NCBI GenBank assembly: GCA_020796225.1 | Contig: CM036775.1 | Span: 6,996,893-7,060,892 of the forward strand | Direction of reading: 5' to 3' | Origin: Arion vulgaris | Taxonomy: Eukaryota; Mollusca; Gastropoda; Stylommatophora; Arionidae | DNA: 64,000 bases | In this document: piece after piece, positions 16,878-63,067 of the stretch | Numbering within the stretch: the first letter of the stretch is position 1 | How the letters are laid out: each line of letters opens with the position of its first letter | Made by a program: the position numbers and the translations under genes | Notes under the pieces: model-generated | Database searches by the model: none | What the model was told of the DNA's origin: nothing | Seen by the model: only the letters and a program-made list of their open reading frames with translations

Positions 16878-16928
16878 ATGCAGTCAATTTTAGCTATCTG
16901 CAGCATCATGATGATGATGTTCCTGCTG
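16878..16928 (+). CDS. micro-exon gene, exon 1 (signal peptide start)
   Basis: The exon encodes MQSILAICSIMMMMFLL, a short N-terminus followed by an unbroken hydrophobic core. This is what the first part of a secretory signal peptide looks like. The codon CTG is followed directly by GTAAGT, a near-perfect donor, so the exon ends in phase 0. A TATATAAA element sits 74 bp before the ATG. All downstream micro-exons also begin and end in phase 0 on the same strand, which makes this a natural first exon for them. The cleavage site must lie in the next exon. The frame also happens to run on past the donor (VSSTVCLFSLTC) into a LINE fragment, so an unspliced reading is possible but less attractive. 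I do not recognise a family. Confidence 0.55.
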
Positions 16929-16984
16929 GTAAGTAGTACTGTTTGTCTGTTCTCTCTTACATGTAGTCCGTTCTGGAAGGGAAC

Positions 16985-17775
16985 TGAGATAAAAACAAAA
17001 AGCAAGTGTTTAAGAGGCTGCGTTTTTCCTTTGGCAACATATGATTGTGAAACATTGAACATTGACAAGGCGCTAGAGAAGGTCATTAATGACGTTGAAT
17101 GCAAGTACTACAGAAGAGTACTTAGAATATCATGGACAGAGAAAAGAAAAAATATTACAGAAGAGTACTTAGAATATCATGGACAGAGAAAAGAAAAAAT
17201 ATTACAGAAGAGTACTTAGAATATCATGGACAGAGAAAGAAAAATATTACAGAAGAGTACTTAGAATATCATGGACAGAGAAAAGAAAAAATATTACAGA
17301 AGAGTACTTAGAATATCATGGACAGAGAAAAGAAAAAATATTACAGAAGAGTACTTAGAATATCATGGACAGAGAAAAGAAAAAATATTACAGAAGAGTA
17401 CTTAGAATATCATGGACAGAGAAAGAAAAATATTACAGAAGAGTACTTAGCATATCATGGACAGAGAAAAGAAAAATGCTTCTGTTCTGCAACAGCTTGA
17501 TATTAAAGAGAGTTGGCTTTAAAGAGCACAAAATCAAGGGAAATTAAATATTTTGGACACATCAAATGACATGAGTGCCTAGAGAAAATAATTTTGAAAG
17601 GAATAGCGTCTGGAAGAAGAATAAGAGGAAGACCTAGAAGACGATGGGTGCAGGATGTCATTGACGATGTGAGAATGACTGCTGCTGACGCCGGACAACT
17701 TTCACAGAACAGAGTTTTTCAGGACTGCTGTCATGTGAGTCACGTTCCGGAAGGGACAAGCTACTTGATGATGAT
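16985..17775 (+). mobile_element. RTE-like LINE 3' end with internal 47-bp array
   Basis: It starts with KTKSKCLRGCVFPLATYDCE, runs into the tandem array (RRVLRISWTEKRKN), then GRRIRGRPRRRWVQDVIDDV. The array breaks the frame. It lies in the proposed intron 1. Confidence 0.8.
17105..17482. repeat. 47-bp tandem array inside a LINE remnant, 8 copies
   Basis: The unit contains TTAGAATATCATGGACAGAG and ATATTACAGAAGAGTAC. Since 47 is not a multiple of three, the frame rotates at each copy (RRVLRISW, then EEYLEYHGQ). This array cannot encode a coherent protein. Confidence 0.92.
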
Positions 17776-17838
17776 GATTATGTTCTATCTTAATTGTAGT
17801 TAGTTGATTCATTACACGGATGTGTAAATGTGTTTATA

Positions 17839-17843
<5 letters not shown>

Positions 17844-17877
<34 letters not shown>

Positions 17878-18298
17878 AGGACCATCACCATTGCACTTAG
17901 GTGAGAAGTCATGCGTGCTCTGATCTCTATCTTACACAGGAAACTAAGCTGCAGTGCACGAATTCCGTGTCACCGGCGAGGGCACCGATGTAATTCTGAA
18001 GATAGTGAAGATAATTTTGTAGCATTTTTAGTTCATTAATATTTTTCATGATATATTTGTCGGTGCAGCGGTTTTCCAGCCTGCTCTTCTCGGTTTTGAA
18101 CTGCCAATGGTTCATGAACGTGCCCAAATTGAACATGGGACTTACATTTTATCCTCCGTCTCCGATATGACTAGTAGCTCGATCTCAAATACACTGAGAT
18201 CCGGATCTTTGTAAACGATCCAGATGGCTCCAGGAAGGAGCTAACCTAGTACCTTTGGCACCAGAGACGAGCACATAACCTCTACTCCACAGAGGCCA
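17844..18298 (-). mobile_element. SINE family 2 copy
   Basis: The (GATT)n tail at 17844-17877 is followed by the same body as 4376-4853. The minus-strand head reads GGCCTCTGTGGAGTAGAGG. Confidence 0.7.
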
Positions 18299-18429
18299 AT
18301 ACATATGTATATTCTCGTGAAGTGTAAGCCCTTAACAGTTGTTCATTACTTTTCTTCGTTTGACCGCTTTTATGCCTCACAAGATAGTAGTGTGTCCACC
18401 AGTTCAACAAGTATACTGCGGACCTGTTT

Positions 18430-18636
18430 TTTTCTTTTTTTCGATCCAGAAGCACTTGAGCTGAAAGCTCTTCGGCTCGGTGTCATGGACATCGTAACCC
18501 TTCGGTTCGGTGCCACGAACACAGTAAATCTGGGGAATCTGTGGCTTTTCTGCCAGTCCGCGGAATTGAACCTGCACTCACAGAGGACTTGTCACATGTA
18601 GTCCAACGCGCTACGAACATGCTGGACAGACGGGCG
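18430..18636 (-). mobile_element. SINE family 1 with 13-bp TSD
   Basis: Flanked by TGCGGACCTGTTT at 18417-18429 and 18637-18649. The minus strand begins GCCCGTCTGTCCAGCATGTT and carries a GGTTCAATTCC-like B box. The tail is a T-run at the left. Other copies are at 35265 and 36498. Confidence 0.9.
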
Positions 18637-18659
18637 TGCGGACCTGTTTAAAATGTACA

Positions 18660-18845
18660 CTTTTTCATTTCTATTACGATCTTTAATGAAGTGCTTGTTT
18701 TCTTCTTCTTCATCTTCTCTCAATCATTCTTCACGGCCAATTTTATCATTTTATTGTGATGTATAATTGGTCCTTTAACAGAACGGGTGATCTACGTCGG
18801 GACGATTGTGCGCCCATGGTGACTAGGCTCGCCCGTAAGTGCTTG
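18660..18845 (-). mobile_element. 3' end related to the 12.9-14.2 kb insertion
   Basis: It carries the inverted match CCATGGTGACTAGGCTCGCC plus ATCTACGTCGGGACGATTG, with a TTCTTCTTCTTC tail at 18702. It shows that the 12.9 kb insertion belongs to a repeated family. Confidence 0.6.
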
Positions 18846-20090: not shown

Positions 20091-20150
20091 AGGTAATGAT
20101 AATGAGTTTTGTTTTATCTTCTGTATACTTTCAGGTTGACAAGTTTCAAG

Positions 20151-20225
20151 CAATTCCAATTCCAAAGCAGTACCGACTATTTTGATGATTATTACAACAA
20201 TTACTATGATTCTTACAACCCTGTG
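20151..20225 (+). CDS. micro-exon gene, exon 2 (Tyr/Asp/Asn-rich)
   Basis: The open reading QFQFQSSTDYFDDYYNNYYD then SYNPV ends at GTG followed by the donor GTAAAT. The composition and the NPV end match the exons at 26844 and 31794 (NPDPV before GTGAGT). The acceptor is uncertain. CAAG/CAATTCC at 20150/20151 gives a 75-nt phase-0 exon, but the better pyrimidine tract leads to TTTCAG at 20134, which gives a 91-nt exon needing an unseen intermediate exon to set the frame. The coding tail and donor are firm; the left edge is not. A hAT MITE sits 15 bp into the following intron. Confidence 0.5.
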
Positions 20226-26843: not shown

Positions 26844-26885
26844 GAGTACGATGATTATAGGGATTATTCAAACCCTGACCCCGTA
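26844..26885 (+). CDS. micro-exon gene, 42-nt exon b
   Basis: TTTATCACTACAG/GAG starts the exon and GTA/GTGAGTATA ends it. It encodes EYDDYRDYSNPDPV (14 codons, phase 0 at both ends). The upstream intron (TAGCACATGATGGTGATGAT, then TTTCTCTTTGTTTATC) and the downstream intron (GTGAGTATATAATTGGCTGT) are clearly homologous to those of the nine exons at 40-64 kb. That conservation of exon plus flanks is the main support. The peptide is acidic and Tyr-rich, with no cysteine. It is repeated almost unchanged at 31794. Confidence 0.72.
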
Positions 26886-31793: not shown

Positions 31794-31835
31794 GAGTACG
31801 ATGATTATAGGGATTATTCAAACCCTGACCCTGTA
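31794..31835 (+). CDS. micro-exon gene, 42-nt exon c
   Basis: Identical peptide to exon b (EYDDYRDYSNPDPV), one silent difference (CCC to CCT). The acceptor is TTTATCACTACAG. The donor is GTGAGA instead of GTGAGT because of one extra A, so it may be slightly weaker. It belongs to the second segmental copy. Peptide identity after duplication may mean either recency or constraint. Confidence 0.7.
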
Positions 31836-44502: not shown

Positions 44503-44547
44503 TATTATAACTATGATTACGCAGGATATCCAGAACACACACCCGAC
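44503..44547 (+). CDS. micro-exon gene, 45-nt exon e
   Basis: CTATCCTGACAG/TAT to GAC/GTGAGTATAC. It encodes YYNYDYAGYPEHTPD, 15 codons, phase 0. It is one of the 45-nt lineage, with the RTE-m insertion 44 bp into the following intron. Confidence 0.72.
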
Positions 44548-44591
44548 GTGAGTATACATTTGTCTATGCTTTCTTGTATCATATTGTCAAT

Positions 44592-46095: not shown

Positions 46096-46214
46096 GACAT
46101 AGAACAGCTTTGTGTCTATTGAAAATATACTTTTGAGCAAGGTTAGAATGAAGAATACATTTTATGATGTCGTCAGAGAAAACCACGATACTGTGCAACT
46201 ACCCGGTAGCAGTG

Positions 46215-46545: not shown

Positions 46546-46711
46546 AGAGCATGATGTCAGTTTTCCTGCAAGACACCTTCAGACACATATTCCAGCACAT
46601 TCTCTTTCTGCATGCTTTTTATTTACGCTTGCATTCTTAAACATGAAAAACAATTATCTAGCACATGATGATGATGATATGTTAGATATTTCTCTTTGTC
46701 TATCCTGGCAG

Positions 46712-46756
46712 TATTATTACGATGATTACGAAGACTATATAGACGACTCATCCGAG
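46712..46756 (+). CDS. micro-exon gene, 45-nt exon f
   Basis: CTATCCTGGCAG/TAT to GAG/GTGAGTATAC. It encodes YYYDDYEDYIDDSSE, phase 0. Tyr surrounded by Asp/Glu is the classic setting for tyrosine sulfation, if secreted. It lacks the upstream RTE insertion found in units e, g and h. Confidence 0.74.
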
Positions 46757-46800
46757 GTGAGTATACATTTGTCTATGTTTTCTTGTATCATATTGTCAAT

Positions 46801-47242
46801 AAGAAAAATAATTATTCATTTCGTTCCGTTATACGCTACATAGAGCCTGCAAGTAATTTATCCATACCGCTCTATCCTGGGCAACTCGCTCAATTTCATC
46901 TATGGAACTGAAACAGATATTTCTTGCCTCTCTTAACAAAGTTCGTTTCAGGGTCTCCTTAGGTCGACCTCTACTTCTTGAACCCTTTGCATCCCACTTC
47001 AATGCCTGCTTTGATATTCGTTGATCATTTCTCCTCAAGGTGTGTCCAACCTATCTCCATCTTCTCTTTCTTATAACAGTTGTTACTAGTGGTTGACCAG
47101 GCATGTCTCTGATTTCATCACTTCTCCTGAATTCGTTCCATTTATGTTCATTATTTTCAGACATCTATTTTCAAATGCATTCAACTTGCTTTCTATATCT
47201 TTAGACATTTTCCAACTCTCGCTGGCATATATGTTAGGATTG
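46801..47242 (-). mobile_element. RTE-m LINE insertion after exon f
   Basis: ATATTGTCAAT at 46790-46800 and ATATTGTTAAT at 47243-47253. Same insertion as after e, g and h; frame-broken at about 47040 and 47150. Confidence 0.9.
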
Positions 47243-47557
47243 ATATTGTTAATGCTAATAAGTAAAACAAAACCAAGTATATGAACATTTCAAAATGGAA
47301 ACATTGAAGTTAGAAACATCATCTTTAGACTGGTTATATAGCAACCTGCTGCCATGCAGGTCGGCTGTGACAGTCGAAGGCTGACGGAGAGAGAACCCAG
47401 TAAACGCTGGTTGAAACCGGGCACTTCACCGAAGGACAATCACTGGAGCTCCAAATGGTACTGAAGATTGTGACGTTAAACAAACGTTCTTGGCAAAGGC
47501 TGTTTATATATCACAAGAAGAATGATCAAAATGGCCAAAAAGAACGATCGCGAGAGA

Positions 47558-47588
<31 letters not shown>

Positions 47589-47697
47589 GTAGAAAGAGAA
47601 AGAGACTGGTCAATGAAGTTGTCAATATGAAATCATAGACATGAGAAATTGTGTTCATTTCTCGTGAACATCCAAACAAACTTTGTCTCGTAATTCA

Positions 47698-48305
47698 CCG
47701 GTACCGGGGTCCACAAGGAAAGCAAAGAATAGGACCACTGTGACCTAAAAGGCATATCATATAAGGCGACTGATATAGGACCATTGAAGCTACCATAGTA
47801 AATAAAAAGCTGAGAAATGGGATGTGCAGGACTACTTGTAGGTGCATAACTGGCAGAACGTACACTCCTTCTTAGACTCAGATCACATACAAATCACAAA
47901 GTGGTTAAGCAAATGATGGATATGGAGCATGTTCTGAGAAGAAATCTTGTAATTATTATCCTTATTTTCATGGTTTTTTCATCATCATCATTATTATTGT
48001 TCTCATTATCTATATAGTCATCATTTTGTTTTTATCATTATCTAAATTATACTTCTTCTTCTTCTTTGTACGCTCCATATCGACCACTTGTTAACCACTT
48101 TTTGTGACTTGTATGTGATCCAAGCCTAAGAACGATTGTATGTTGTGCCAATTATGCGCCTACATGTAGACCTGTACATCTGATTTATGCGACGTTTTTT
48201 ATATACTAGAGAATACTCCCGATGCCTCTACCTCAATCGCCTCGTACGACGTGTTTTGTAGGTCTCAGTGTTACTAATCTTTAGTCCCATTGAGATTCCC
48301 TACAA
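47698..48305. repeat. inverted SINE family 3 pair, intron f/g
   Basis: Plus 47698-47945, minus 48054-48305, AT-rich spacer. Confidence 0.85.
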
Positions 48306-48429
48306 GACATAGGCAAGCTTTGTGTCTATTGAAAATATACTTTTGAGCAAAGTTAGAATGAAGAATACATTTTATGATGTCGTCAGAGAAAAACACGACA
48401 CTGTGCAACTACCCAGTAGCAGTGGGAGG

Positions 48430-48600
48430 ACAAAAGAAGAGGAAGAAGAACCACTTGTTATCTCACGTTTTGTGGTCGTTATGTGCAATGTATGTGATTT
48501 AAGAGAGCAGACAGAGAATGGCTCACAAAGAAAAACACCATCACATATGGAGACCACCAGGAGCAGAGAGAACATACTATATATCAGCTCCAGTCTCTCT
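48430..48600 (+). mobile_element. zinc-finger LINE end, cut by I-like insertion
   Basis: EEEEEPLVISRFVVVMCNVC, truncated at the I-like element as in units e and i. Confidence 0.75.
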
Positions 48601-48614
48601 ACTTCTAGAGACTA

Positions 48615-49457
48615 TTGGTTATTGGTCACTAAACTGACGTCATTGCACTCCGGGCAGACCTCATGGTGCTCAGTCTCCCCAACAGATATCGAAGAGTATG
48701 CTTACTGATGGTTCCTGTGGCTCACTGATTACAATGGATACAATGCAGTTCTACTTGAACAACGGGTAACTCCAAACTTCTTAAATCGCTTGATCGATTC
48801 AACATCGATTTTAGTGTCCTTATCCAACAGACAGTCGCGAAGAGACCGAAGAACATCCGCTTATCCATCTTCAACTCCCCAACAATCGATGCTGTTGATG
48901 CAAGCCTGTCCGCTCTCTCATTACGTAACACCAACATGCCCAGGACAGTATATCCACGTAAGCCGCTGGAGGTTGAAACTTCTATAGACGACATCCACTC
49001 ATACCGAAACCTGCCTTCTGAATCTTGTGAAGCATCGACTGAGAGTCAGATACAACAATTGCCCCAGTAAAGGAAGTCCCAGAAATCCAATGGAGGGCAG
49101 CAGTAACGGTCTCAACCTCCATCCTCATACTAGAAGTAGTTATCCTGTATACCCCACTTCGCTCTGCAACAACACTACCATGCGCATTAGCCAAAAAACA
49201 CCAGCCGGATTTCTCACCACGTTGAACCGACCCATCGGTATATACAACAACATCATCATCCCTTGCATTATCTTCTATCAGCTGCTTAACTGCGAGATCA
49301 GCCTTCATGTTGCCCCAATCTCTACATTCTCTTCCAAGAGTAATGCTAACATTGAGATAGTTCATCATGCTACCATCTGTTGGGATCCATTCTTCCCCTT
49401 TTGGTACGGTCGCAACCGTAGTGACCTTGCCAATTGTTCTCTCAGCCTGGGCCATCC
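48615..49457 (-). mobile_element. I-like LINE insertion (unit g), 14-bp TSD
   Basis: ACTTCTAGAGACTA at 48601-48614 and 49458-49471. The best-preserved copy: an open minus frame of 157 residues includes VVVYTDGSVQRGEKSGWCF (first RNase H Asp), SMRMEVETVTAAL (Glu) and VVSDSQSMLHK (Asp). A broken frame then gives NERADRLAST. Confidence 0.92.
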
Positions 49458-49529
49458 ACTTCTAGAGACTAAAAAAATAAAATAACACAATTGTCTTCTC
49501 CCTTTCCTTTCGCTCTTGGTTCTCAGTTC

Positions 49530-49592
49530 TCACCGTTCTTCTCCAGTTCTCACCGTTCTCCTCCAGTTCTCACCGTTCTTCTCCAGTTCTCA
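49530..49592. repeat. 20-bp minisatellite, 3 copies
   Basis: Same motif and position as 42575-42636. Confidence 0.9.
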
Positions 49593-49784
49593 AAGCTAAC
49601 TGTATTCAAACTATAGCATATGTGCAATTTCAGCCTAGCTGCCCCTTACTCCAGTCACGAGATACCCGCCTTGAACGGGAATCGTCCAATACCCTGTGAT
49701 AAGTGGGTTGCTCGGGTTTAGTAATCTACCGGTCAGTAGTGGTATGACAGGTAAACAATCAATTTATTAACTAATTGAATTGGC

Positions 49785-50035
49785 CAAGGAACCCTGTTTG
49801 AGTTATATTGAGAAACAAAGAATGGATGGTTTGGCACTTAATAAGAATGCATCCAAACTCCACAGTATGTAGGGTCTTCTACAACAGAATGTCAGGAAAG
49901 AAGGGTAGAGGAAGACCACGAAAAAGATGGTTAGATGGCATGGAAGAATCCTGACATAGAGTAAAATAACAATTATCCAGGCTACCAGAACAGCGCAAGA
50001 CAAAAGCAGAAAACTACAACAATGGGCAACAATCC
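49785..50035 (+). mobile_element. RTE-like LINE 3' fragment (unit g)
   Basis: Same as 39440-39705. Confidence 0.7.
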
Positions 50036-50039
50036 GGTA

Positions 50040-50392
50040 GCAGTGTGAGGACAAAAGAAGAGGAAGAAGAACACCTTGTTATCTCACGTTTTGTGGACGT
50101 TATGTGCAATGTATGTGATTTACGAGCGACAGACAGAGAAATGGCTCACAAAGAAACACCATCACATATGGAGACCACCAGGAGCAGGGAGAACATCCTA
50201 TATATCAGCTCAAGTCTCCAGTTTCACCTGCAGCAACTGTGGGAAAGATTGTCACTCTAGAATACACCGTTACAGCCACAAGAGAAGGTGTGATTCAGCA
50301 CATAACAAACTATGTGACACAAAACCTATCGTCTCCTGAGATCAAGAAGCTCATGATGATGATGAGATTTGTATCCAGAGTATGATGTCAGT
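50040..50392 (+). mobile_element. zinc-finger LINE end (unit g)
   Basis: KEEEEEHLVISRFVDVMCNV to SFTCSNCGKDCHSRIHRYSH with one frame change; (ATG)n tail near 50352-50366. Confidence 0.75.
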
Positions 50393-50414
50393 TTGCCTGC
50401 AAGACACCTTTAGA

Positions 50415-51151
50415 TCCATCATCATTAATCCTCTCCGCTCCTCGTGGAGCATAGGGCCTCAACAGTTGTTCGCCACTCTTCTCGGTCCCTGGCTGTTCTT
50501 TTTATGGTCTCCCAGGTCAATTGAACACTCTTCAGCTCCTCAATAAGACCTCGTCTCCAAGTCTGCTTAGGGCGTCCTCTTTTTCGTTTTCCCTGCGGGT
50601 TCCACTCGAGCACCTGTCTAGAGATACTCGACTGTGTCTTCCGCAAGGTATGGCCTATCCATCGCCATCTCTCCTCTTGACCTGTGTCATCATAGGTTCC
50701 TGCCCTGTTCTTATCCACAGATCTGTGTTTGCAACTCTATCATACCATCTCAGTCTGAGAATCCGCCGCAAACATCCGTTGACAAGGTCTGGATCTTATT
50801 TGTATTTGCCCTAGTGACTCGCCAAGTTTCCAAGCCATACAGCAACACCGACTTTACATTTGAGCTGAAAATCTTGAGCTTTGTTTTCGTGGAGATGGCA
50901 GCGGACTTCCACACCATGTGCAGGATCGCAAAGGCCTGTCGGGTATTCCTAATCCTAGCATTAATGTCCTCATCTGTACCTCCTGATCTGCTGATCTTAC
51001 TTCCAAGGTAGACACATTCATCCACATCTTCTATGTTCCTTCACTCAATCAGTATTGGATCTTGCTGTATGTTGTTGCTACGCATTACTTTAGTGTTCTC
51101 TTGACTGATTTTAAGACAGACTCGTTGTGCCGTTTGTGTCAGAGCATCCAT
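50415..51151 (-). mobile_element. RTE-like LINE insertion upstream of exon g
   Basis: CCTTTAGA at 50407 and CCTTCAGA at 51152. Minus frames read MDECVYLGSKISRSGGTDED and WIGHTLRKTQSSISRQVLEW. Confidence 0.9.
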
Positions 51152-51287
51152 CCTTCAGACACATATTCGAGCACATTCTCTTTCTGCATGCTTTTTATTC
51201 ACGCTTGCATTCTTAAACATGAAAAACAATTATCTAGCACATGATGATGATGATATGTTATATCTTTCTCTTTGTCTATCCTGACAG

Positions 51288-51332
51288 TATTATTACTATG
51301 AGGACCCAACATATACAGGCCTCCATTACGAC
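51288..51332 (+). CDS. micro-exon gene, 45-nt exon g
   Basis: CTATCCTGACAG/TAT to GAC/GTGAGTATAT. It encodes YYYYEDPTYTGLHYD, phase 0. Flanks are as for exons e and f. The sequence differs from e and f at most positions while length and phase are kept. Confidence 0.72.
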
Positions 51333-51376
51333 GTGAGTATATATTTGTCTATGTTTTCTTGTATCATATTGTCAAT

Positions 51377-51814
51377 AAGAAAAAATAATTCCTCTCGTTC
51401 CGTTATACGTTGCATAGGGCCTGCAAGTATTTCTCCATACCACTCTATCCTGGGCAACTCGCTCAATCTCATCCATGGAACTGAGACCGATATTTTTTGC
51501 CTCTCTTAACTTAGTTCGTTTCAGGGTCTCCTTATGTCGACCTCTAATTCTTGAACCCTTTACCTCCACTTCAATGCCTGCTTTCATATTCGTTGATCAT
51601 TTTCCTCAAGGTGTGTCCAACATATCTCCATCTTGTCTTTCTTATAACAGTTGTCACTAGTGGTTGACCAGACATTTCACTGATTTCATCACTTCTCCTG
51701 AATTCGTTCCATTTTATATTCATTTTTTTCGCAGACATCTTTTTTCAAATGCATTCAACTTGCTTTACATATCTTTAGTCATTTTCCAACTCTCGCTAGC
51801 ATATGTTAGGATTG
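51377..51814 (-). mobile_element. RTE-m LINE insertion after exon g
   Basis: Perfect 11-bp duplication ATATTGTCAAT at 51366-51376 and 51815-51825. Confidence 0.93.
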
Positions 51815-52128
51815 ATATTGTCAATGCTAATAAGTAAAACAGAAACAAGTATATGAACATTTCAAAATGGAAACATTGAAGTTAGAAACATCAACTTCTT
51901 AGACTGATCAAAAATAGCAACCTGCTGCCTTGCAGGTCGACTGGGAGCAGTCAAAGTCTGACGGAGAGCGAACCCAGTAAAAGCTGGATGAAATCGGGCA
52001 CGTCGCCGAAGGACAAGCACTAGAGCTCCAAATGTTACTGAAGATTGTGACGTTAAACAAACGTTCTTGGCAAATGCTGTTTATATATCACAATAAGAAT
52101 GATCAAAATGGTCAAAAAGAACGATCGC

Positions 52129-52159
<31 letters not shown>

Positions 52160-52276
52160 GTAAAAAGAGGTAGAGAGAGAAATAAACTGGTCAATGAAGT
52201 TGTCAATATGAAATCATAGACATGAGAAATTGTGTTCATTTCTCGTCAACATTAAAACAAACTTTGTCTCGTAATT

Positions 52277-52870
52277 CACCGGTACCGGGGCCCACAAGGG
52301 AAGCAAAGAATAGAACCACTGCAACATACAAGGCATATCGTAAGAGGCGACTGATGTAGTACACAGGAAGCTACCTAGTAAATAAAAGCTCTGGAAATCA
52401 GATGTGCTGCCAACTTGTAGGAGCATAACTGGCAGAACGTACAATCCTTCTTAGACTCAGATCACATACAAATCACAAAGAGTGGTTAAACAAATGATGG
52501 ATATGGAGCGTGTTCTAAGAAGAAATCTTGTAATTATTATCCTTGTTTCCATTGTTATTTCATCATCATTATTATTGTTCTCATTATCTATATTGTCATC
52601 ATTTTGTTTTTATCATTATCTAAATTATACTTCTCCTTTGCACGCTCCATATTGACCACTTGATAACCACTTTTTGTGACTTGTATGTGATCCAAGCCTA
52701 AGAACGATTGTACGTTGTGCCAATTATGCGCCTACATGTAGGCCTGCACATCTGATTTATGCAACGCTTTTTATTTACTAGGGAATACTCCCTAGGCCCC
52801 TACCTCAATCGCCTCGTACGACGTGTTTTGTAGGTCTCAGTGTTACTAATCTTTATTCCCATTGAGAGCC
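52277..52870. repeat. inverted SINE family 3 pair, intron g/h
   Basis: Plus 52277-52525, minus 52630-52870, with an AT-rich spacer. Confidence 0.85.
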
Positions 52871-52884
52871 CCTGCAAGATTAGA

Positions 52885-53290
52885 ATGAAGAATACATTTT
52901 ATGATGTCAGAGAAAACCACGACACTGTGCAACTACCCAGTAGCAGTGTGATGACAAAAGAAGAGGAAGAAGAACACCTTGTTATCTCACGTTTTGTGGA
53001 CGTTATGTGCAATGTATGTGACTTACGAGCGGCAGACAGAGAAATGGCTCACAAAGAAAAACACCATCACATATGGAGACCACCAGGAGCAGGGAGAACA
53101 TCCTATATATCAGCTCAAGTCTCTAGTTTCACCTGCAGCAACTGTGGGAAAGATTGTCACTCTAGAATACACCGTTACAGCCACAAGAGAAGGTGTGATT
53201 CAGCACAGAACAAATTATGTGACACAAAACCTATCGTCTCCTGAGATCAAGAAGCTCATGATGATGATGAGATTTGTATCCAGAGTATGA
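52885..53290 (+). mobile_element. zinc-finger LINE end, intact frame (unit h)
   Basis: One open frame reads RMKNTFYDVRENHDTVQ, EEEEEHLVISRFVDVMCNVC, then TCSNCGKDCHSRIHRYSHKR and RCDSAQNKLCDTKPIVS and stops. The CxxC-x(11)-H-x4-C pattern resembles the terminal knuckle found in LINE ORFs, and the (ATG)n tail follows. I treat it as LINE, not a host exon. Confidence 0.7.
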
Positions 53291-53319
53291 TATCAGTTTT
53301 CCTGCAAGACACCTTTAGA

Positions 53320-54051
53320 TCCATCATCATTAATCCTCTCCGCTCCTCGTGGAGCATAGGGCCTCAACAGTTGTTCGCCACCCTTCTCGGTCCCTGGCTG
53401 TTCTTTTTATGGTCTCCCAGGTCAATTGAGCACTCTTCAGCTCCTCAATAAGACCTCGTCTCCAAGTCTGCTTAGGGCGTCCTCTTTTCGTTTTCCCTGC
53501 GGTTCCACTCGAGCGCCTGTCTAGAGATACTCGACTTGTCTTCCGCAAGGTATGGCCTATCCATCGCCATCTTCTCCTCTTGACCTGTGTCATCATAGGT
53601 TCCTGCTCTGTTCTTATCCACAGATCTGTATTTGTAACTCTATCATACCATCTCAGTCTGAGAATCCGCCGCAAACATCCGTTGACAAAGGTCTGGATCT
53701 TATTTGTATTTGCCCTAGTGACTCGCCAAGTTTCGGAGCCAAACAGCAACACCGACTTCACATTTGAGCTGAAAATCGTGAGCTTTGTTTTCGTGGAGAT
53801 GGCAGCGGACTTCCACACCATGTGCAGCATCGCAAAGGCCTGTCGTGCCTTCCTAATCCTAGCACTAATGTCCTCATCTGTACCTCCTAATCTGCTGATC
53901 TTACTTCCAAGGTAGACAAATTCATCCACATCTTCTATGTCCCTTCACTCAATCAGTATTGGATCTTGCTGTATGGTGTTGCTACGCATTACTTTAGTGT
54001 TCTCTTGACTGATTTTAAGACCGACTCGTTGTGCCGTTTGTGTCAGAGCAT
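53320..54051 (-). mobile_element. RTE-like LINE insertion upstream of exon h
   Basis: CCTTTAGA at 53312 and CCTTCAGA at 54052. An open minus frame of 199 residues reads MDEFVYLGSKISRLGGTDED, LQRRILRLRWYDRVTN-like text, VKRRRWRWIGHTLRKTS and GRPKQTWRRGLIEELKSAQL. Confidence 0.92.
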
Positions 54052-54187
54052 CCTTCAGAAACATATTCCATCACATTCTATTTCTGCATGCTTTTTATTC
54101 ACGCTTGCATTCTTAAACATGAAAAACAATTATCTAGCACATGATGATGATGATATGTTAGATATTTCTCTTTGTCTATCCTGACAG

Positions 54188-54231
54188 GATTTTACGATGA
54201 TTACGAAGACTATATAGACACTCCCTCCGAG
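54188..54231 (+). CDS. micro-exon gene, exon h (44 nt, frame-broken)
   Basis: CTATCCTGACAG/GAT to GAG/GTGAGTATAC; both splice sites look intact. It aligns with exon f over TTACGATGATTACGAAGACT but is 44 nt, one base short in the T-run near its start. As written, inclusion shifts the frame. This is either a consensus error at a homopolymer or a decaying exon. Confidence 0.5.
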
Positions 54232-54275
54232 GTGAGTATACATTTGTCTATGTTTTCTTGTATCATATTGTCAAT

Positions 54276-54720
54276 AAGAAAAATAATTATTCATTTCGTT
54301 CCGTTATACGCTACATAGAGCCTGCAAGTAATTTATCCATACCACTCTGTCCTGGGCAACTCGCTCAATTCATCCATGGAACTGAAACCGATATTTCTTG
54401 CCTCTCTTAACAAAGTTCGTTTCAGGGTCTTCTTAGGTCGACCTCTACTTCTTGAACCCTTTGCATCCCACTTCAATGCCTGCTTTGATATTCTTTGATC
54501 ATTTCTCCTCAAGGTGTGCCCAACATATCTCCATCTTCTCTTTCTTATAACAGTTGTCACTAGTGGTTGACCAGACATTTCACTGATTTCATCACTTCTC
54601 CTTAATTCGTTACATTTTATATTCATGATTTTTCGCAGACATCTAAATTCAAATGAATTCAACTTGCTTTCTATATCTTTAGTCATTTTCCAACTCTCGC
54701 TAGCATATATGTTAGGATTG
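54276..54720 (-). mobile_element. RTE-m LINE insertion after exon h
   Basis: ATATTGTCAAT at 54265-54275 and ATGTTGTCAAT at 54721-54731. Minus frame MTKDIESKLNSFEFRCLRKI continues to RGRPKKTLKRTL and then breaks. Confidence 0.9.
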
Positions 54721-55177
54721 ATGTTGTCAATGCTAATAAGTAAAACAGAAACAAGTATATGAACATTTCAAAATGGAAACATTGAAGTTAGAAACATCAA
54801 CTTCTTAGACTGGTCAATAATAGCAACCTGCTGCCATGCAGGTCGGCTGGGACAGTCAAAGTCTGACGGAGAGAGAACCCAGTAAACGCTGGTTGAAATC
54901 GGGCACTTCACCGAAGGACAAGCACTAGAGCTCCAAATGGTACTGAAGATTGTGACGTTAAACAAACGTTCTTGGCAAAGGCTGTTTATATATCACAAGA
55001 AGAATGATCAAAATGGCCAAAAAGAACGATCGCGAGAGAAAGAGAGAGAGAGAGAGAGAGGTAGAAAGAGGTAGAGAGAGAAAGAGACTGGTCAATGAAG
55101 TTGTCAATATGAAATCATAGACATAAGAAATTGTGTTCATTTCTCGTGAACATCCAAACAAACGTTGTCTCGTAATT

Positions 55178-55790
55178 CACCCATGTGGTGCCGGCGCCCA
55201 CAATGGAAGTAAAGAATAGGACCACTGCAACATAAAAGGCATATCGTAAGAGGCAACTGATGTAGTACACAGGAAGCTACCTAGTAAATAAAAAGCTTCG
55301 TGGAAATCATATGTGCTGCCAACTTGTAGTCGCATAACTGGCAGAACGTACACTCTATCTTAGACTCAGATCACATAGAAATCACAAAGAGTGGTTAAAC
55401 AAATGATCGATATGGAGCGTGTTCTAAGATTAAATCTTGTAATTATTATCCTTATTTTCATAGTTATTTGATCATCATCATTATTATTCTCATTATCTAT
55501 ATAGTCATCATTTTGTTTTTATCATTATCTAAATTATACTTCTTCTTTTTTTTACGCTCCATATCGACCACTTGAGATCCACTTTTTGTGACTTGTATGT
55601 GATCTGAGTCTAAGAACGATTGTACGTTGTGCCAATTATGCGCCTACATGTAGGCCTGCACATCTGATTTATGCGACGCTTTTTATATACTAGAGAATAC
55701 TCCCGATACCTGTAACTCAATCGCCTCGTACGACGTGTTTTGTAGGTCTCAGTGTTACTATTTTTTAGTCCCATTGAGATTCCCCACAAG
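55178..55790. repeat. inverted SINE family 3 pair, intron h/i
   Basis: Plus 55178-55430, minus 55541-55790, AT-rich spacer. Confidence 0.85.
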
Positions 55791-55914
55791 ACATAGGCAA
55801 GCTTTGTGTCTATTGAAAATGTACTTTTGAGCAAAGTTAGAATGAAGAATACATTTTATGATGTCGTCAGAGAAAACCACGACACTGTGCAACTACCAGG
55901 TAGCAGTGGGATGA

Positions 55915-56086
55915 CAAAAGAAGAGGAAGAAGAACCACTTGTTATCTCACGTTTTGTGGTCGTTATGTGCAATGTATGTGATTTACGAGCGGCAGACAGA
56001 GAAATGGCTCACAAAGAAAAACACCCTCACATATGGAGACCACCAGGAGCAGAGAGAACATACTATATATCAGCTCCAGTCTCTCT
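55915..56086 (+). mobile_element. zinc-finger LINE end, cut by I-like insertion
   Basis: Same structure as 41470 and 48430. Confidence 0.75.
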
Positions 56087-56100
56087 ACTTCTAGAGACTA

Positions 56101-56900
56101 TTGGTTATTGGTTACTAAACTGACGTCATTGCACTCCGGGAAGACCCATAGGTGCTCAGTCTCCCCAACAGATATTGAAGAGTATGCTTACTGATGGTTC
56201 CTGTGGCTCACTGATTACAATGGATACAATCCAGTTCGACTTGAACAACGGGCAACTCCAAACTTCTTAAATCGCTTGATCGATTCAACATCGATTTTAG
56301 TGTCTTCATCCAACAGACAGTCGCGAAGAGACCGAAGAATATCCCCTTATCCATCTTCAACTCCCCAACAATCGATGCTGTTGATGCAAGCCTGTCCGCT
56401 CTCTCATTACCGTAAACACCAGCATGCCAAGGACAGTATATCCACGTAAGCCTCTGGAGGTTAGAAACTTCTATAGACGACATCCACTCATACCGAAACC
56501 TGCCTTCTGAATCTTGTGAAGCATCGACTGAGAGTCAGATACAACAGCCCCAGTAAATAAAGTCCAGAAATCAATGGAAGGCAGCAGTAACGTCTCAACC
56601 TCCATCCTCATGACTATAACTAGTTGTCCTGTATGCCCACTTCGCTCTGCAACAACCCTACAGGCTGCAAAAACACGATTCTCACCACGTTGAACGACCC
56701 ATCGTTATACAAGAACATCCTCGTCCCTTGCATTATCTTCTTCATCTGCTTAACTGCGAGATCACCTTCATGTTGCACCAATCTCTACATTCTCTTCAAG
56801 AGTAATATCATTAGAAGTTCATCATCTACCATCTGTTGGATCTATCTTCCGTGCAGTCCAACCGTATTGACCTGGATTGTTCTCTCAGCCTGGGCCATCC
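56101..56900 (-). mobile_element. I-like LINE insertion (unit i), indel-rich
   Basis: ACTTCTAGAGACTA at 56087-56100. The right duplication is decayed (ATCTAGAACTA). From about 56550 on there are many single-base deletions relative to units e and g. Confidence 0.85.
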
Positions 56901-57194
56901 ATCTAGAACTAAAAAATTTGAAATACACATTTTCTTCTCCCATTCCTTTCGCTCTTGGTTCTCAGTTCTCACCGTTCTTCTCCAGTTCTCACGTTCTCCT
57001 CCAGTTCTCGACGTTCTCCTCAGGTTCAAGTAACTGTATTCTAACTAGCATATGTGCAATTTCAGCTCACTGCCCCTACTCCAGTCTCGAGATACCGGCA
57101 ACGGAATCGTTCAATACCCTGTGATAAGTGGGTTGCTCGGGTTTAGTAATCTACCGTCAGTAGTAGATGACTCAATTATCTAACAATCAATTTA

Positions 57195-57775
57195 TAACTG
57201 ATTGAATTGTCAAGGTCTATTGAGTTATAATGCAAATGGAGTGGTTCCACTTTATAAGAATGCATACAAACTCCACAGTAGGCAGTTTGCTCCGACTATT
57301 CGGAAGAAGGTGGGAAGACACGAAAGATGGTTGAGCATGAGAATCCTGCCAAAGCAAAAATACCATTATCAGCACCAGAACAGCGCAAGACGAAAGCAGA
57401 AAACACGACATGGCAACATTCCCAGTAACAGTGGATGACAAAGAAGAGGAAGAAGAACACCTTGTTATCTCACTTTTGTGGTCGTTATGTGCAATGTATG
57501 TGATTTAGAGCGGACAGACAGAGAAATGACTCACAAAGAAAAACACCATCACATATGGAGACCACAATGAGCAGACAGAACATCTTGTATATCAGCTCCA
57601 GTTTCACCTACAGAAACTGTGGGAAAGATTGTCACTCTAGAATACACCATTACAGCCACAAGAGAAGGTGTTATTCAGCACAGAACAAACTATGTGACAC
57701 AAAACCTATCGTCTCCTGAGATCAAGAAGCTCATGATGATGATGAGATTTGTGTCCAGTGCATGATGTCAGTTTT
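57195..57775 (+). mobile_element. RTE-like fragment plus zinc-finger LINE end (unit i)
   Basis: Same modules as units d and e with many small deletions; (ATG)n tail near 57731-57745. Confidence 0.65.
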
Positions 57776-57922
57776 CCTGCAAGACACCTTCAGACACATA
57801 TTCCAGCACATTCTCTTTCTGCATGCTTTTTATTCACGCTTGCATTCTTAAACATGAAAATCAATTATCTAGCACATGATGATGATGATATGTTAGATCT
57901 TTCTCTTTGTCTATCCTGACAG

Positions 57923-57949
57923 GAGTATTTCTATGAGTACCCACCCGAG
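57923..57949 (+). CDS. micro-exon gene, 27-nt exon i
   Basis: CTATCCTGACAG/GAG to GAG/GTGAGTATAC. It encodes EYFYEYPPE, phase 0, one residue different from exon d. No RTE-m in the following intron. Confidence 0.72.
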
Positions 57950-58431
57950 GTGAGTATACATTTGTCTTTGTTTTCTGGTATCATATTGTCAATGCAAATA
58001 AATAAAACAGAAACAAGTATATGAACATTTCAAAATGGAAACATTGAAGTTAGAAACATCAACTTCTTAGACTGGTCAATAATAGCAACCTGCTGCCATG
58101 CAGGTCGCTGGGACAGTCAAGAGTCTGACGGAGAGGAACCCAGTAAACGCTGGTTGAAATCGGCACTTCACCGAAGAACAAGCACAGGCTACCAATGGTA
58201 CTGAAGATTGTGACGTTAAACAAACGTTCTTGACAAGGCTGTTTATATATCACAATAAGAATGATCAAAATGGCCAAAAGAACGATCGCGAGAGAAGAGA
58301 GAGAGAGAGAGGGAGGTGAAAGAGGTAGAGAGAGAAAGAGACTGGTCAATGAAGTTGTCAATATGAATTCATAGACATGAGAAATTTGTTCATTTCTCGT
58401 GAACATCAAACAAACTTTGTCTCGTAATTCA

Positions 58432-59030
58432 CCAATGTGGTGCCAGGCCCACAAGGGAAGTAAAGAATAGGACCACTGCAACATAAAGGCATATCGTAAG
58501 AGGCAACTGATGTATACAAGGAAGCTACCTAGTAAATAAAAGCTTCGTGGAAATCATATGTGCTGCCAACTTGTAGGAGCATAACTGGCAGAACGTACAC
58601 TCTATCTTAGACTCAGATAACATACAAATCACAAAGAGTGGTTAAACAAATGATCGATATGTAGCGTGTTCTAAGAAGAAATCTTGTAATTATTATCCTT
58701 ATTTCCATGGTTATTTCATCATCATTATTATTGTTCTCATTATCTATATTGTCATCATTTGTTTTATCATTATCTAAATTATACTTCTTCTTCTTCTTCT
58801 TTGTACGTTCCATATGATCACTTGAACCACTTTTGTGACTTGTATGTGATCTGAGTCTAAGAACGATTGTACGTTGTGCCAATTATGCGCCTACATGTAG
58901 GCCTGGCATCGATTTATGCGACGCTTTTTATATACTAGAGAATACTCCCGATGCCTGTAACTCAATCGCCTCGTACGACGTGTTTTGTAGGTCTCAGTGT
59001 TACTAATCTTTAGTCCCATTGAGATTCCCT
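58432..59030. repeat. inverted SINE family 3 pair, intron i/j
   Basis: Plus 58432-58680, minus 58785-59030. Confidence 0.8.
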
Positions 59031-59149
59031 ACAGGACATAGGAAACTTGTGTCTATTGAAAATGTACTTTTGAGCAAGAGTTAGAAGAATACATTTTATA
59101 AATGTCGTCAGAAAAAACCACGACACTGTGCAACTACCCAGTAGCAGTG

Positions 59150-59485
59150 GGAGGACAAAAGAAGAGGAAGAAGAACCACTTGTTCTACTTTTTGTGGACG
59201 TTATGTCAATGTATGTGATTTACGAGCGGCAGTAACAGAGAAATGGCTCACAAAGAAAAACACCCATCACATATGGAGACCACCAGAGCAGAGAACATCT
59301 TATATAGCAGCTCCAGTCTCCAGTTTCACCTGCAGCAACTGTGGAAAATTTCACTCTAGAATACACCGTTACAGCCACAAGAGAAGGTGTGATTCAGCAC
59401 AGAACAAACTATGTGACACAAAACCTATCGTCTCTGAGATCAGAAGCTCATGATGATGATGAGATTTGTGTCCAGTGCATGATGT
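59150..59485 (+). mobile_element. zinc-finger LINE end (unit j)
   Basis: Frame-broken by single-base gaps; (ATG)n tail. Confidence 0.7.
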
Positions 59486-59639
59486 CAGTTTTCCTGCAAG
59501 ACACCTTCAGACACATATTCCAGCACATTCTCTTTCTGCATGCTTTTTATTCACACTTGCATTCTTAAACATGAAAAACAATTATCTAGCACATGATGAT
59601 GATGATATGTTATATATTTCTCTTTGTCTATCCTAACAG

Positions 59640-59666
59640 TATGAATTCTATGAGTACCCACCCGAC
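59640..59666 (+). CDS. micro-exon gene, 27-nt exon j
   Basis: CTATCCTAACAG/TAT to GAC/GTGAGTATAC. It encodes YEFYEYPPD, phase 0. It is the first of three short (1.70-kb) units. Confidence 0.7.
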
Positions 59667-60144
59667 GTGAGTATACATTTGTCTATGTTTTCTGGTATCA
59701 TATTGTCAATGCTAATAAATAAAACAGAAACAAGTATATGAACATTCAAAATGGAAACATGAAGTTAGAACATCAACTCTTAGACTGGTCAATAATGCAA
59801 CCTGCCAACGCAGTCGGCTGGGACAGTCGAAGGCTGACGGAGAGCGAACCCAGTAAACGCTGGTTGAAATCGGCCGTCGCCGAAGAACAAGCACTAGAGC
59901 TCCAAATGGTACTGACGATTGTGACGTTAAACAAACGTTCTTGGCAATGGCTATTAATATATCACAAGAAGAATGATCAAAATGGCCAAAAAGAACGATC
60001 GCGAGAGAGAGAGAGAGAGAGAGAGGTAAAAAGAGGTAGAGAGAGAAATAAACTGGTCAATGAAGTTATCAATGTAAATCATAAACATGAGAAATTGTGT
60101 TCATTTCTCGTCAACATTAAAACAAACTTTGTCTCGTAATTCAC

Positions 60145-60730
60145 TGGTACAGGGTCAAAAGGGGAAGCAAAGAATAGAACCACTGCAACTTTTACAAGGC
60201 ATATCTAAGAGGCGATGATGTGAACAGGGAAGCTTCCATGTAAATAAAAGCTTGTGGAAATCAGATGCTGCCAACTTGTAGTCTATAACTGGCAGAACTG
60301 TACACTCTATCTTAGACTCGATCACATACAAATCACAAGAGTGGTTAAACAAATGATGGATATGTTCTAGAAGAAATCTTGTAATTATTATCCTTATTTC
60401 CATATATTTCATCATCATCATTATTATTCTTTTATCTATTTTGTCATCATTTTGTTTTTATCATTATCTAAATTATACTTCTTCTTCTTTTTTGTACGCT
60501 CCATATCGACCACTTGAGATCCACTTTTTGTGACTTGTATGTGATCCAAGCCTAAGAACGATTGCGTTGTCCCAAATTTATGCGCCTACTGTAGGCCTGG
60601 ACATCTGATTTATGCGACGCTTTTATATACTAGAGAATACTCCGATGCTCTACCTCACCCGCCTCTAACGACGTGTTTTGTAGGTCTCAGTGTTACTATT
60701 TGTTAGTCCCATTGAGATTCCCTACATGAC
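60145..60730. repeat. inverted SINE family 3 pair, intron j/k
   Basis: Plus 60145-60375, minus 60478-60730. Confidence 0.8.
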
Positions 60731-60743
60731 ATAGGCAAGCTTT

Positions 60744-61185
60744 GTGTCTATTGAAAATGTACTTTTAAGCAAGGTTAGAATGAAGAATACATTTTATAAT
60801 GTCGTCAGAGAAAACCACGACACTGTGCAACAACCCAGTAGCAGTGGGATGACAAAAGAAGAGGAAGAAGAACCACTTGTTATCTCACGTTTTGTGGACG
60901 TTATGTGCAATGTATGTGATTTACGAGCGGCATACAGAGAAATGGCTCACAAAAAAAACACCATCACATATGGAGACCACCAGGGCAGAGAACACCCTTA
61001 TATATCAGCTCCAGTCTCCAGTTTCACTTGCAGCAACTGTGGGAAAGATTGTCACTCTAGAATACACCGTTACAGCCACAAGAGAAGGTGTGATTCAGCA
61101 CAGAACAAACTATGTGACACAAAGCCTATCTTCTCCTGAGATCAAGAAGCTCATGATGATGATGAGATTTGTGTCCAGAGTATGA
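60744..61185 (+). mobile_element. zinc-finger LINE end, mostly open (unit k)
   Basis: A 131-codon frame includes EEEEEPLVISRFVDVMCNVC and SFTCSNCGKDCHSRIHRYSH. Same logic as 52885. Confidence 0.7.
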
Positions 61186-61340
61186 TATCAGTTTTCCTGC
61201 AAGACACCTTCAGACACATATTCCAGCACATTCTCTTTCTGCATGCTTTTTATTCACGCTTGCACTCTTAAACATGAAAAACAATTATCTAGCACATGAT
61301 GATGATGATATGTTAGATATTTCTTTGTCTATCCTGACAG

Positions 61341-61366
61341 TATGAATTCTATGAGTCCCCACCGAC
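61341..61366 (+). CDS. micro-exon gene, exon k (26 nt, frame-broken)
   Basis: CTATCCTGACAG/TAT to GAC/GTGAGTATAC. It reads YEFYESPP plus two bases. CCACCGAC replaces CCACCCGAC of exon j, one C fewer. Splice sites are intact. Inclusion alone shifts the frame. Confidence 0.45.
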
Positions 61367-61851
61367 GTGAGTATACATTTGTCTATGTTTTCTTGTATCA
61401 TATTGTCAATGCTAATAAATAAAACAGAAACAAGTATATGAACATTACAAAATGGAAACAGTGAAGTTAGAAACATCAACTTCTTAGACTGGTCAATAAT
61501 AGCAACTGCTGCCATGCAGGTCGGCTGGAAGTCGAAAGGATGACGGAGAGCGAACCCAGTAAACGCTGGTTGAAATCGGGCACGTCGCCGAAGAACAAGC
61601 ACTAGAGCTCCAAATGGTACTGAAGATTGTGACGTTAAACAAACGTTCTGGCAATGGCTTTTATATATCACAATAAGAATGATCAAAATGGCCAAAAGAA
61701 CGATCGCGAGAGAGAGAGAGAGAGAGAGAGAGAGGTAAAAAGAGGTAGAGAGAGAAATAAACTGGTCAATGAAGTTGTCAATATGAAATCATAACATGAG
61801 AAATTGTGTTCATTTCTCGTCAACATTAAACAAACTTTGTTTTGTAATTCA

Positions 61852-62435
61852 CTGGTACCAGATGCCACAAGGGAAGCAAAGAATAGGACCACTGCAACAT
61901 ACAAGGCATATCGTAGAGAGCTGATGTAGTACACAGGGAAGCTTCCATAGTAAATAAAAAGCTTCGTGGAAATCAGATGTGCTGCCAACTTGTAACGCAT
62001 AATTTGGCAGAACGTCAATCTCTTAGACTCAGATCACATACAAATCAAAAAGATGGTTAAACAAATGATGGATAGGGGCTTCTAAGAAGAAATCTTGTAA
62101 TTATTATCCTTATTTCCATTGTTATTTGATCATCATTATTATTCTCATTATCTATATTGTCATATTTTGTTTTATCATTATCTAAATTATACTTCTTCTT
62201 TTGTACGCTCCATATCGACCACTTAGAGATCCATTTTGTGACTTGTATGTGATCTGAGTCTAAGAACGATTGTACGTTGTGCCAATTATGCGCCTACATG
62301 TAGGCCTGTACATCTGATTTATGCGACGCTTTTATATACTAGAGAATACTCCCGATGCCTGTAACCTCAATCGCCTCTACGACGTGTTTTGTAGGTCTCA
62401 GTGTTACTATTTTAGTCCCATTGAGATTCCCTAAG
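61852..62435. repeat. inverted SINE family 3 pair, intron k/l
   Basis: Plus 61852-62090, minus 62190-62435. Confidence 0.8.
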
Positions 62436-62449
62436 CATAAGCAAGCTTT

Positions 62450-62885
62450 GTGTCTATTGAAAATGTACTTTTAGCCAAGGTTAGAATGAAGAATACATTT
62501 TATGATGTCGTCAGAGAAAACCACGACACTGTGCAACTACCCAGTAGCAGTGGGATGACAAAAGAAGAGGAAGAAGAACCACTTGTTATCTCACGTTTGT
62601 GGACGTTATGTGCAATGTATGTGGATTTGAGCGGACAGAGAAATGGCTCACAAAGAAAAACACCATCACATATGGAGACCACCAGGAGCAGAGAACATCT
62701 TATATAGCAGCTCCAGTCTCCAGTTTCACCTGCAGCAACTGTGGGAAATATTTCACTCTAGAATACACCGTTACAGCCACAAGAGAAGGTGTGATTCAGC
62801 ACAGAACAACTATGTGACACAAACCTATCTCTCCTGAGATCAAGAAGCTCATGATGATGATGAGATTTGTGTCCAGAGTATGATA
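62450..62885 (+). mobile_element. zinc-finger LINE end (unit l)
   Basis: EEEEEPLVISRLWTL and SFTCSNCGKYFTLEY; frame-broken by single-base gaps. Confidence 0.7.
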
Positions 62886-63041
62886 TCAGTTTTCCTGAAA
62901 AGACACCTTCAGACACATATTCCAGCACATTCTCTTTCTGCATGCTTTTTATTCACGCTTGCACTCTTAAACATGAAAAACAATTATCTAGCACATGATG
63001 ATGATGATATGTTAGATATTTCTCTTTGTCTATCCTGACAG

Positions 63042-63067
63042 TATGAATTCTATGAGTACCCACCGAC
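63042..63067 (+). pseudogene. micro-exon l (26 nt, donor GT lost)
   Basis: CTATCCTGACAG/TAT to GAC/ATGAGTATAC. It lacks the same C as exon k, and the donor reads AT instead of GT. It reads YEFYEYPP plus two bases. As written it should not splice normally. Confidence 0.55.

What the first reader, a model, noticed from the sequence alone, without database searches (positions are those of the whole stretch)
16878..63067. Secreted micro-exon gene built from a tandem array of Tyr/Asp/Glu/Pro-rich phase-0 exons
Twelve short exons lie on the plus strand between good AG and GT sites: one at 20.15 kb, then 42, 42, 27, 45, 45, 45, 44, 27, 27, 26 and 26 nt at 26844, 31794, 40212, 44503, 46712, 51288, 54188, 57923, 59640, 61341 and 63042. 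Intact lengths are multiples of three and phase 0, so any subset can be joined without losing frame. An upstream exon starts a signal peptide and also ends in phase 0. This resembles schistosome micro-exon genes in design, but here the exons are tandem paralogues in transposon-filled introns. The combinatorial product would be a family of secreted acidic Tyr-rich peptides. I know of no described gene like it.
Basis: partly seen in the sequence, partly recalled or inferred. Interest (0 to 1): 0.92.

Follow-up and report, generated by a model that had tools for sequence, protein, structure and literature searches.

The report
Tandem tiny exons, protein-diversifying
This stretch of an unnamed animal's genome holds a row of copied tiny exons that probably spell a secreted, tyrosine-rich acidic protein, and in the longer copies the protein-coding letters have changed far faster than the DNA around them, a sign that evolution is favouring variety.

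Summary
The 11 micro-exons listed from 26.8 to 63 kb lie where stated. Eight keep frame and both splice sites; 54188, 61341 and 63042 have lost frame, 63042 also its donor. They are copies of one another in units (1.7-4.6 kb) with retroelement fragments, so not independent evidence. The strong evidence is evolutionary. In the long class the exon is the most variable 45-nt window of its unit (0 of 2322 outside windows reach it, one broken copy included; 0 of 2336 for two intact copies). In the three intact 45-nt exons replacement sites differ at 0.41, silent sites at 0.08; unit bulk differs at 0.03-0.08 over six pairs, splice flanks at 0.02-0.03. That suggests diversifying selection with conserved splicing signals. 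The 27-nt class shows no such excess, nor does pair 46712-54188. The signal-peptide exon does not join the 20.1-kb exon in frame at its best acceptor. The design resembles schistosome micro-exon genes, where tandemly repeated exons and raised dN/dS are in print. No sequence relative was found; named transposon relatives are mostly molluscan. No RNA was available.

The parts
16797..16804 (+). TATA-like box about 80 nt before the first ATG
   Evidence: sequence; weak, a consensus match only
16878..16928 (+). candidate first coding exon, MQSILAICSIMMMMFLL, donor CTG|GTAAGTA in phase 0
   Evidence: only phase-0 one of 6 plus-strand candidates, but chance expectation 0.55
20135..20225 (+). candidate exon, 91 nt, one base + 30 codons ending ...SSTDYFDDYYNNYYDSYNPV, leaves in phase 0
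   Evidence: alternative acceptor 20151 would be phase 0 but scores poorly
26844..26885 (+). micro-exon EYDDYRDYSNPDPV, 42 nt, phase 0
31794..31835 (+). micro-exon EYDDYRDYSNPDPV, 42 nt, recent copy of 26844 in a segmental duplication
36792..64000 (.). tandem array with nine exons spaced 1.7-4.6 kb and retroelement fragments; runs off the window end (exon-bearing unit sequence from about 39189)
40212..40238 (+). micro-exon YYFYEYPPE, 27 nt
44367..44502 (+). 136-nt conserved core before the exon, shared by all nine array units (95-98%); a 52-nt part also precedes 26844 and 31794
44503..44547 (+). micro-exon YYNYDYAGYPEHTPD, 45 nt
44548..44591 (+). 44-nt conserved core after the exon, with donor GTGAGTATACA
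46712..46756 (+). micro-exon YYYDDYEDYIDDSSE, 45 nt, in a hybrid unit (short-type upstream, long-type downstream)
51288..51332 (+). micro-exon YYYYEDPTYTGLHYD, 45 nt
54188..54231 (+). frame-broken copy, 44 nt, stop codon in phase 0
57923..57949 (+). micro-exon EYFYEYPPE, 27 nt
59640..59666 (+). micro-exon YEFYEYPPD, 27 nt
61341..61366 (+). frame-broken copy, 26 nt
63042..63067 (+). frame-broken copy, 26 nt, AT where the others have the donor GT

Best explanation
This is the 5' and middle part of one gene whose body is a row of duplicated micro-exons. Shown from sequence: one ancestral exon with about 136 nt before it and 44 nt after it was copied many times; retroelement fragments sit in the copies; exchange between units made a hybrid (46712); splice-site neighbourhoods stayed alike while the amino acids of the intact 45-nt exons changed about five times faster than silent sites. 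Inferred: because intact exons begin and end between codons, the cell can include any subset and keep frame; broken copies must be skipped or end the protein. The product is a disordered, acidic, Tyr-rich protein, probably secreted and probably sulfated on tyrosine. It meets a changing partner (host, parasite, prey or mate), and exon copying plus replacement change supplies new variants. Exons ending in GAG have a stronger donor than those ending in GAC, so inclusion may differ between exons.
For: Long exons: pN 0.408, pS 0.081 over the three intact copies; 44 of 135 pairwise exon sites differ against 12 of 465 in the splice flanks. Against unit bulk 200-1000 nt downstream, 5 of 6 pairs of the four long copies have an exon excess at P between 6e-06 and 1.7e-11. 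The exon is the most variable 45-nt window: 23 variable columns of 44 against at most 9 in 2322 windows outside (44503, 51288, 54188); with the intact pair 44503/51288 alone 15 of 45 against at most 10 in 2336; with the three intact ones, mostly downstream, 21 of 45 against at most 15 in 1735. Silent divergence (0.081) is only slightly above unit bulk (0.034-0.075), so the exons do not look simply older than the introns. In the long exons a marked replacement excess appears in frame 0 and not in frames 1 (pS 0.619, pN 0.252) or 2 (0.346, 0.367). A 52-nt element before the acceptor is shared by both 42-nt exons and all nine array exons.
Against: No RNA; no terminal exon; the window ends inside the array. 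Pair 46712-54188 shows no replacement excess (pN 0.121, pS 0.222; P 0.055), and with 54188 included pooled pS rises to 0.163 (pN 0.387). The three intact 27-nt exons have 10 replacement and 0 silent pairwise differences, but silent differences are 0 in every frame and the exons are not unusually variable (327 of 1605 windows outside are as variable; 350 of 1582 with 61341 added). 3 of 11 exons are frame-broken. The signal-peptide exon does not join the 20.1-kb exon in frame at its best acceptor. Pairwise counts share exons and are not independent: few lineages stand behind the test. No relative of the product was found.
Confidence: 0.62

Rival explanations
1. A dying or dead gene: the array is a repeat-driven expansion of one old exon, now decaying, and most copies are never spliced.
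For: 3 of 11 exons frame-broken, one without a donor, two of them with the same loss; short exons change no faster than the units around them; no connected 5' end.
Against: Decay would hit silent and replacement sites alike and would not stop at the splice sites; the intact 45-nt exons show pN 0.408 against pS 0.081 while splice flanks stay at 0.02-0.03. A formerly active gene with recent death remains possible.
Confidence: 0.2
2. A structural secreted protein (shell matrix, egg coat or adhesive, Tyr as DOPA precursor) in which all exons are always included and the array simply lengthens a low-complexity acidic chain; exon change is drift within a loose composition.
For: Peptides differ while keeping composition: 34% Tyr, 30% acidic; low-complexity chains tolerate change.
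Against: Loose constraint gives replacement divergence up to the neutral rate, not above it; for the pair 44503-51288 14 of 33 replacement sites differ where flanks give 0.056 (P 9.6e-10). Frame-broken copies would truncate a constitutive product.
Confidence: 0.2
3. Exons older than the units: introns were made alike by gene conversion or recent exchange while the exons kept old differences.
For: The units do recombine: 46712 has short-type upstream and long-type downstream sequence. With 54188 included pooled pS is 0.163.
Against: Old exons would differ at silent sites too; in the three intact copies pS is 0.081, near the bulk. Conversion would have to stop at the splice sites in each copy.
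Confidence: 0.12
4. A true schistosome-type micro-exon gene in a fluke, homologous to a known MEG family.
For: Same design: small symmetric exons, long introns, transposons at the locus, raised dN/dS (passages of PMC10526429 and PMC4350168).
Against: No relative found. Of the 120 transposon relatives listed (of 731), 16 bear an organism name: 10 molluscan, none from a flatworm.
Confidence: 0.1

Closest known systems
Schistosome micro-exon genes (MEG), above all MEG-4 / Sm10.3 and MEG-3
   Same: Small symmetric exons, long introns with transposable elements, tandemly repeated exons, raised dN/dS (passages of PMC10526429, PMC4350168, PMC3961193).
   Different: No sequence relative found; exons are 27-45 nt with Tyr/Asp/Glu/Pro and no Cys; taxonomic hints favour a mollusc; here the replacement excess is seen between neighbouring exons of one array.
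Aphid bicycle genes
   Same: Many micro-exons in a rapidly evolving gene for putative effectors (passages of PMC9168663).
   Different: Bicycle internal exons are almost all phase 2; the array exons here are phase 0. The CYC motif that names bicycle genes (recalled) needs Cys; the micro-exon peptides have none.
Dscam hypervariable exon clusters
   Same: Clusters of variable exons that diversify one product (start of abstract of PMC3364881 seen in a listing).
   Different: Dscam uses mutually exclusive exons; nothing here shows mutual exclusion (not tested), and phase-0 multiples of three allow any subset.
Venom genes with conserved introns and fast-changing exons (recalled)
   Same: Exons change faster than their introns.
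   Different: There whole paralogous genes diverge; here exons inside one array. No cysteine framework, no similarity found.

Membership tests
Schistosome micro-exon gene | Coding region mostly in very small exons whose lengths are multiples of three (3-81 bp in PMC10526429; 6-36 bp in PMC3961193) | tested here: met
   8 of 11 exons are 27, 42 or 45 nt and phase 0; 3 of 11 are 44 or 26 nt. The 42- and 45-nt ones exceed the 6-36 range. The rest of the coding region is outside the window.
Schistosome micro-exon gene | N-terminal signal peptide | tested here: inconclusive
   Candidate exon 16878-16928, but not joinable in frame to the best-scored 20135 exon
Schistosome micro-exon gene | Long introns, transposable elements at the locus | tested here: met
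   Introns of about 1.7-8.4 kb by exon spacing, with DUF6451, RNase H and sub-threshold reverse transcriptase fragments in the window
Schistosome micro-exon gene | Exon skipping in transcripts | not testable with these tools
   No RNA data
Schistosome micro-exon gene | Sequence relationship to a MEG, or schistosome origin | tested here: not met
   9 candidates, none at E<=1; no flatworm among the 16 organism-named of 120 listed transposon relatives. The word-based search is weak for such peptides, so absence is not proof.
Aphid bicycle gene | Internal exons almost all phase 2 | tested here: not met
   The 8 intact micro-exons read in phase 0; the 20135 exon, if real, enters off phase 0. Phase 2 for bicycle genes from passages of PMC9168663
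Aphid bicycle gene | Paired CYC motifs (recalled) | tested here: not met
   No Cys in the 86 micro-exon residues

The most novel reading that the evidence does not exclude
An animal outside the schistosomes, probably a mollusc, has independently evolved a micro-exon gene that works as a diversity generator: transposon-rich tandem units multiply one phase-0 exon, splicing signals are held constant, and selection drives the exon peptides apart inside a single gene to yield a repertoire of secreted acidic, possibly tyrosine-sulfated proteins.
Probability: 0.35. Interest if true: 0.82.

Novelty: new variant of a known kind. Interest (0 to 1): 0.62.

Why it matters
If right, the micro-exon gene design is not a schistosome peculiarity but a route by which animals make variable secreted proteins, and it can be watched at work: units, a hybrid, diverging exons and broken exons lie side by side in one locus. 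It also suggests a way to find such genes without homology or RNA: look for short windows inside tandem repeats that are more divergent than the repeat and bounded exactly by splice sites. Exons this small are easily missed in annotation (abstracts of PMC8831610 and PMC7821500, seen in a listing).

Tried and rejected
Chance open frames: rejected for the 45-nt exons. Exons as part of a transposon: at the cut-off used, the 120 nt before the exon matches elsewhere in the window only over 16-21 nt and the 136-nt core only at the exons. Other reading frames: frame 1 is open in two of three intact long exons but gives more silent than replacement divergence (pS 0.619, pN 0.252), and one copy has a stop. 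A relic of further exons between 32 and 40 kb: none found. Homologues by protein, Pfam, PDB and peptide letters in papers: none (one search listed three papers on other subjects, seen as a listing only). A viral-contig scan for the conserved element gave 0. Species naming: not achieved.

Errors of mine: searches used 20113 for the 20-kb exon; the exon starts at 20135. In one search the printed downstream values for the four pairs with 63042 repeat the value before; they were not added to the totals. For 46712 the upstream comparison with the long copies beyond about 110-136 nt sets unlike sequence side by side and was not used. Flank counts and bulk counts were typed in. One search printed only frames starting before 44000.
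Full report
WHAT IS THERE. The window is 39.7% G+C. I saw no ordinary gene in the frame lists (frames of 130 aa or more, shorter frames, printed only for starts before 44000). Ten frames were scanned with Pfam: DUF6451 in three, RNase H in one, and reverse transcriptase below its cut-off in one. All 11 micro-exons listed from 26844 to 63042 are at the stated positions and lengths. Eight of 11 have a multiple of three and both splice sites. 54188 is 44 nt and runs into a stop in phase 0; 61341 and 63042 are one base short at the same place, and 63042 has AT for GT. That shared loss is probably inherited rather than a sequencing slip, since the two copies differ elsewhere (1 of 26 exon sites, 2 of 50 after it).

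THE 5' END. The 20.15-kb exon is best placed at 20135-20225: acceptor score 5.4, against -5.1 for 20151, with weights that I recalled and did not train. It then needs two bases from an earlier exon. The signal-peptide exon 16878-16928 ends in phase 0 with a strong donor (6.7), so the two do not join in frame; no linking exon passed the thresholds among 6 acceptors and 3 donors in between. The signal-peptide exon is the only phase-0 one of 6 plus-strand candidates (three phase-2 ones score marginally higher in hydropathy), the minus strand has 11, and the simulated expectation for its class is 0.55 per strand. It stands as plausible only.

HOW THE ARRAY AROSE. From about 36.8-39.2 kb to the window end the sequence is a tandem array (exon spacing 1.7-4.6 kb) whose copies longer than 600 nt match one another at about 87-95%. 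Short (27-nt) and long (45-nt) exon units share 136 nt before the exon and 44 nt after it, beyond which they differ; part of the differing sequence is retroelement (DUF6451 in 43750-44259 and 53330-53944). Unit 46712 joins short-type upstream to long-type downstream sequence, a mark of exchange between units. The 42-nt exons at 26844 and 31794 lie in a separate segmental duplication and share a 52-nt stretch before the acceptor with the nine array exons at about 85-90%. So all 11 exons probably go back to one ancestor and count as one event for splice-site evidence.

SELECTION. In the three intact 45-nt exons, 44 of 135 pairwise sites differ, against 8 of 315 in the 105 nt before and 4 of 150 in the 50 nt after. 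Replacement divergence is 0.408 and silent 0.081. Unit bulk (200-1000 nt downstream) gives 0.034-0.075 over the six pairs of the four long copies; the exon excess is significant in 5 of 6 pairs and at P 0.055 in 46712-54188. In the aligned units of 44503, 51288 and 54188 the exon has 23 variable columns of 44; of 2322 windows of 45 outside it none reaches that, the highest being 9. For the intact pair 44503/51288 it is 15 of 45 against at most 10 in 2336 windows; for the three intact copies, mostly downstream, 21 of 45 against at most 15 in 1735. Silent sites near the bulk rate, replacement sites several times above it and splice flanks below it are what diversifying selection on the peptide with purifying selection on splicing would leave. 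Limits: few independent lineages; adding 54188 raises pS to 0.163 with pN 0.387; the three intact 27-nt exons have 10 replacement and 0 silent differences, but silent differences are 0 in all three frames and 327 of 1605 outside windows are as variable as they are (350 of 1582 with 61341), so they do not support the claim; the 42-nt pair differs at one silent site and says nothing.

PRODUCT. The seven distinct intact micro-exon peptides hold 34% Tyr, 30% Asp+Glu, 13% Pro, one basic residue and no Cys in 86. Tyrosines amid acidic residues suit sulfation (established knowledge of tyrosylprotein sulfotransferase, not tested). No Pfam family at E<=1, no PDB sequence at E<=1, and no protein at E<=1 from 9 candidates. 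Donors after GAG score 7.0 and after GAC 2.3, which would predict unequal inclusion.

ORGANISM. Not named. Of 731 relatives of a retroelement frame 120 were listed, and 16 of these bear an organism name: 10 from molluscs (Elysia 3, Littorina 2, Batillaria, Octopus, Saccostrea, Crassostrea, Mytilus), 2 from a fish, 2 from insects, 1 coral, 1 bacterial bin; none from a flatworm. An RNase H frame is 91% like an unnamed protein over 88% of its length. A mollusc is the best guess; transposon similarity is weak evidence.

COMPARISON. Schistosome MEGs share the design. [quoted passage not shown] So tandem paralogous exons are not new. What I did not find in print, in the searches (open-licence PMC papers only, judged from listings), is such a gene outside schistosomes with this peptide type, or replacement excess measured between exons of one array. 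Aphid bicycle genes differ in phase (passages of PMC9168663).

VERDICT. A probably real micro-exon array with signs of positive selection in its 45-nt exons; secretion and combinatorial splicing remain inference.

Noticed in passing
window 12943-13021 (+): A match to the HDV-like self-cleaving ribozyme family drz-agam-1, full length of the model, 30.3 bits, below the gathering score of 37 (E 0.047 for the whole window, 0.00044 for 601 bases). Such ribozymes are known at retrotransposon 5' ends (recalled).
   Followed up: partly
window 22074-26673 and 29792-31625: Two large arrays of the same 36-nt satellite (about 128 and 51 copies), each about 170 nt upstream of a 42-nt micro-exon, inside a segmental duplication whose copies differ in satellite length.
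   Followed up: partly
window 37714-39257, 42571-42633, 49520-49592, 56963-57021: A 20-nt satellite (CAGTTCTCACCGTTCTCCTC or near it) of about 79 copies at the head of the array and about 3-4 copies at three later places; the short ones may be remnants of the same insertion.
   Followed up: no
window 2068-4155 and 16289-16683: Further satellites: 82-nt unit, 25 copies, and 34-nt unit, about 12 copies, the latter about 200 nt upstream of the candidate first exon.
   Followed up: no
window 52287-52872: A near-palindrome of about 590 nt (70% alike to its own reverse complement) within an array unit; part of a sequence next to the 42-nt exon recurs in both orientations in the units.
   Followed up: no
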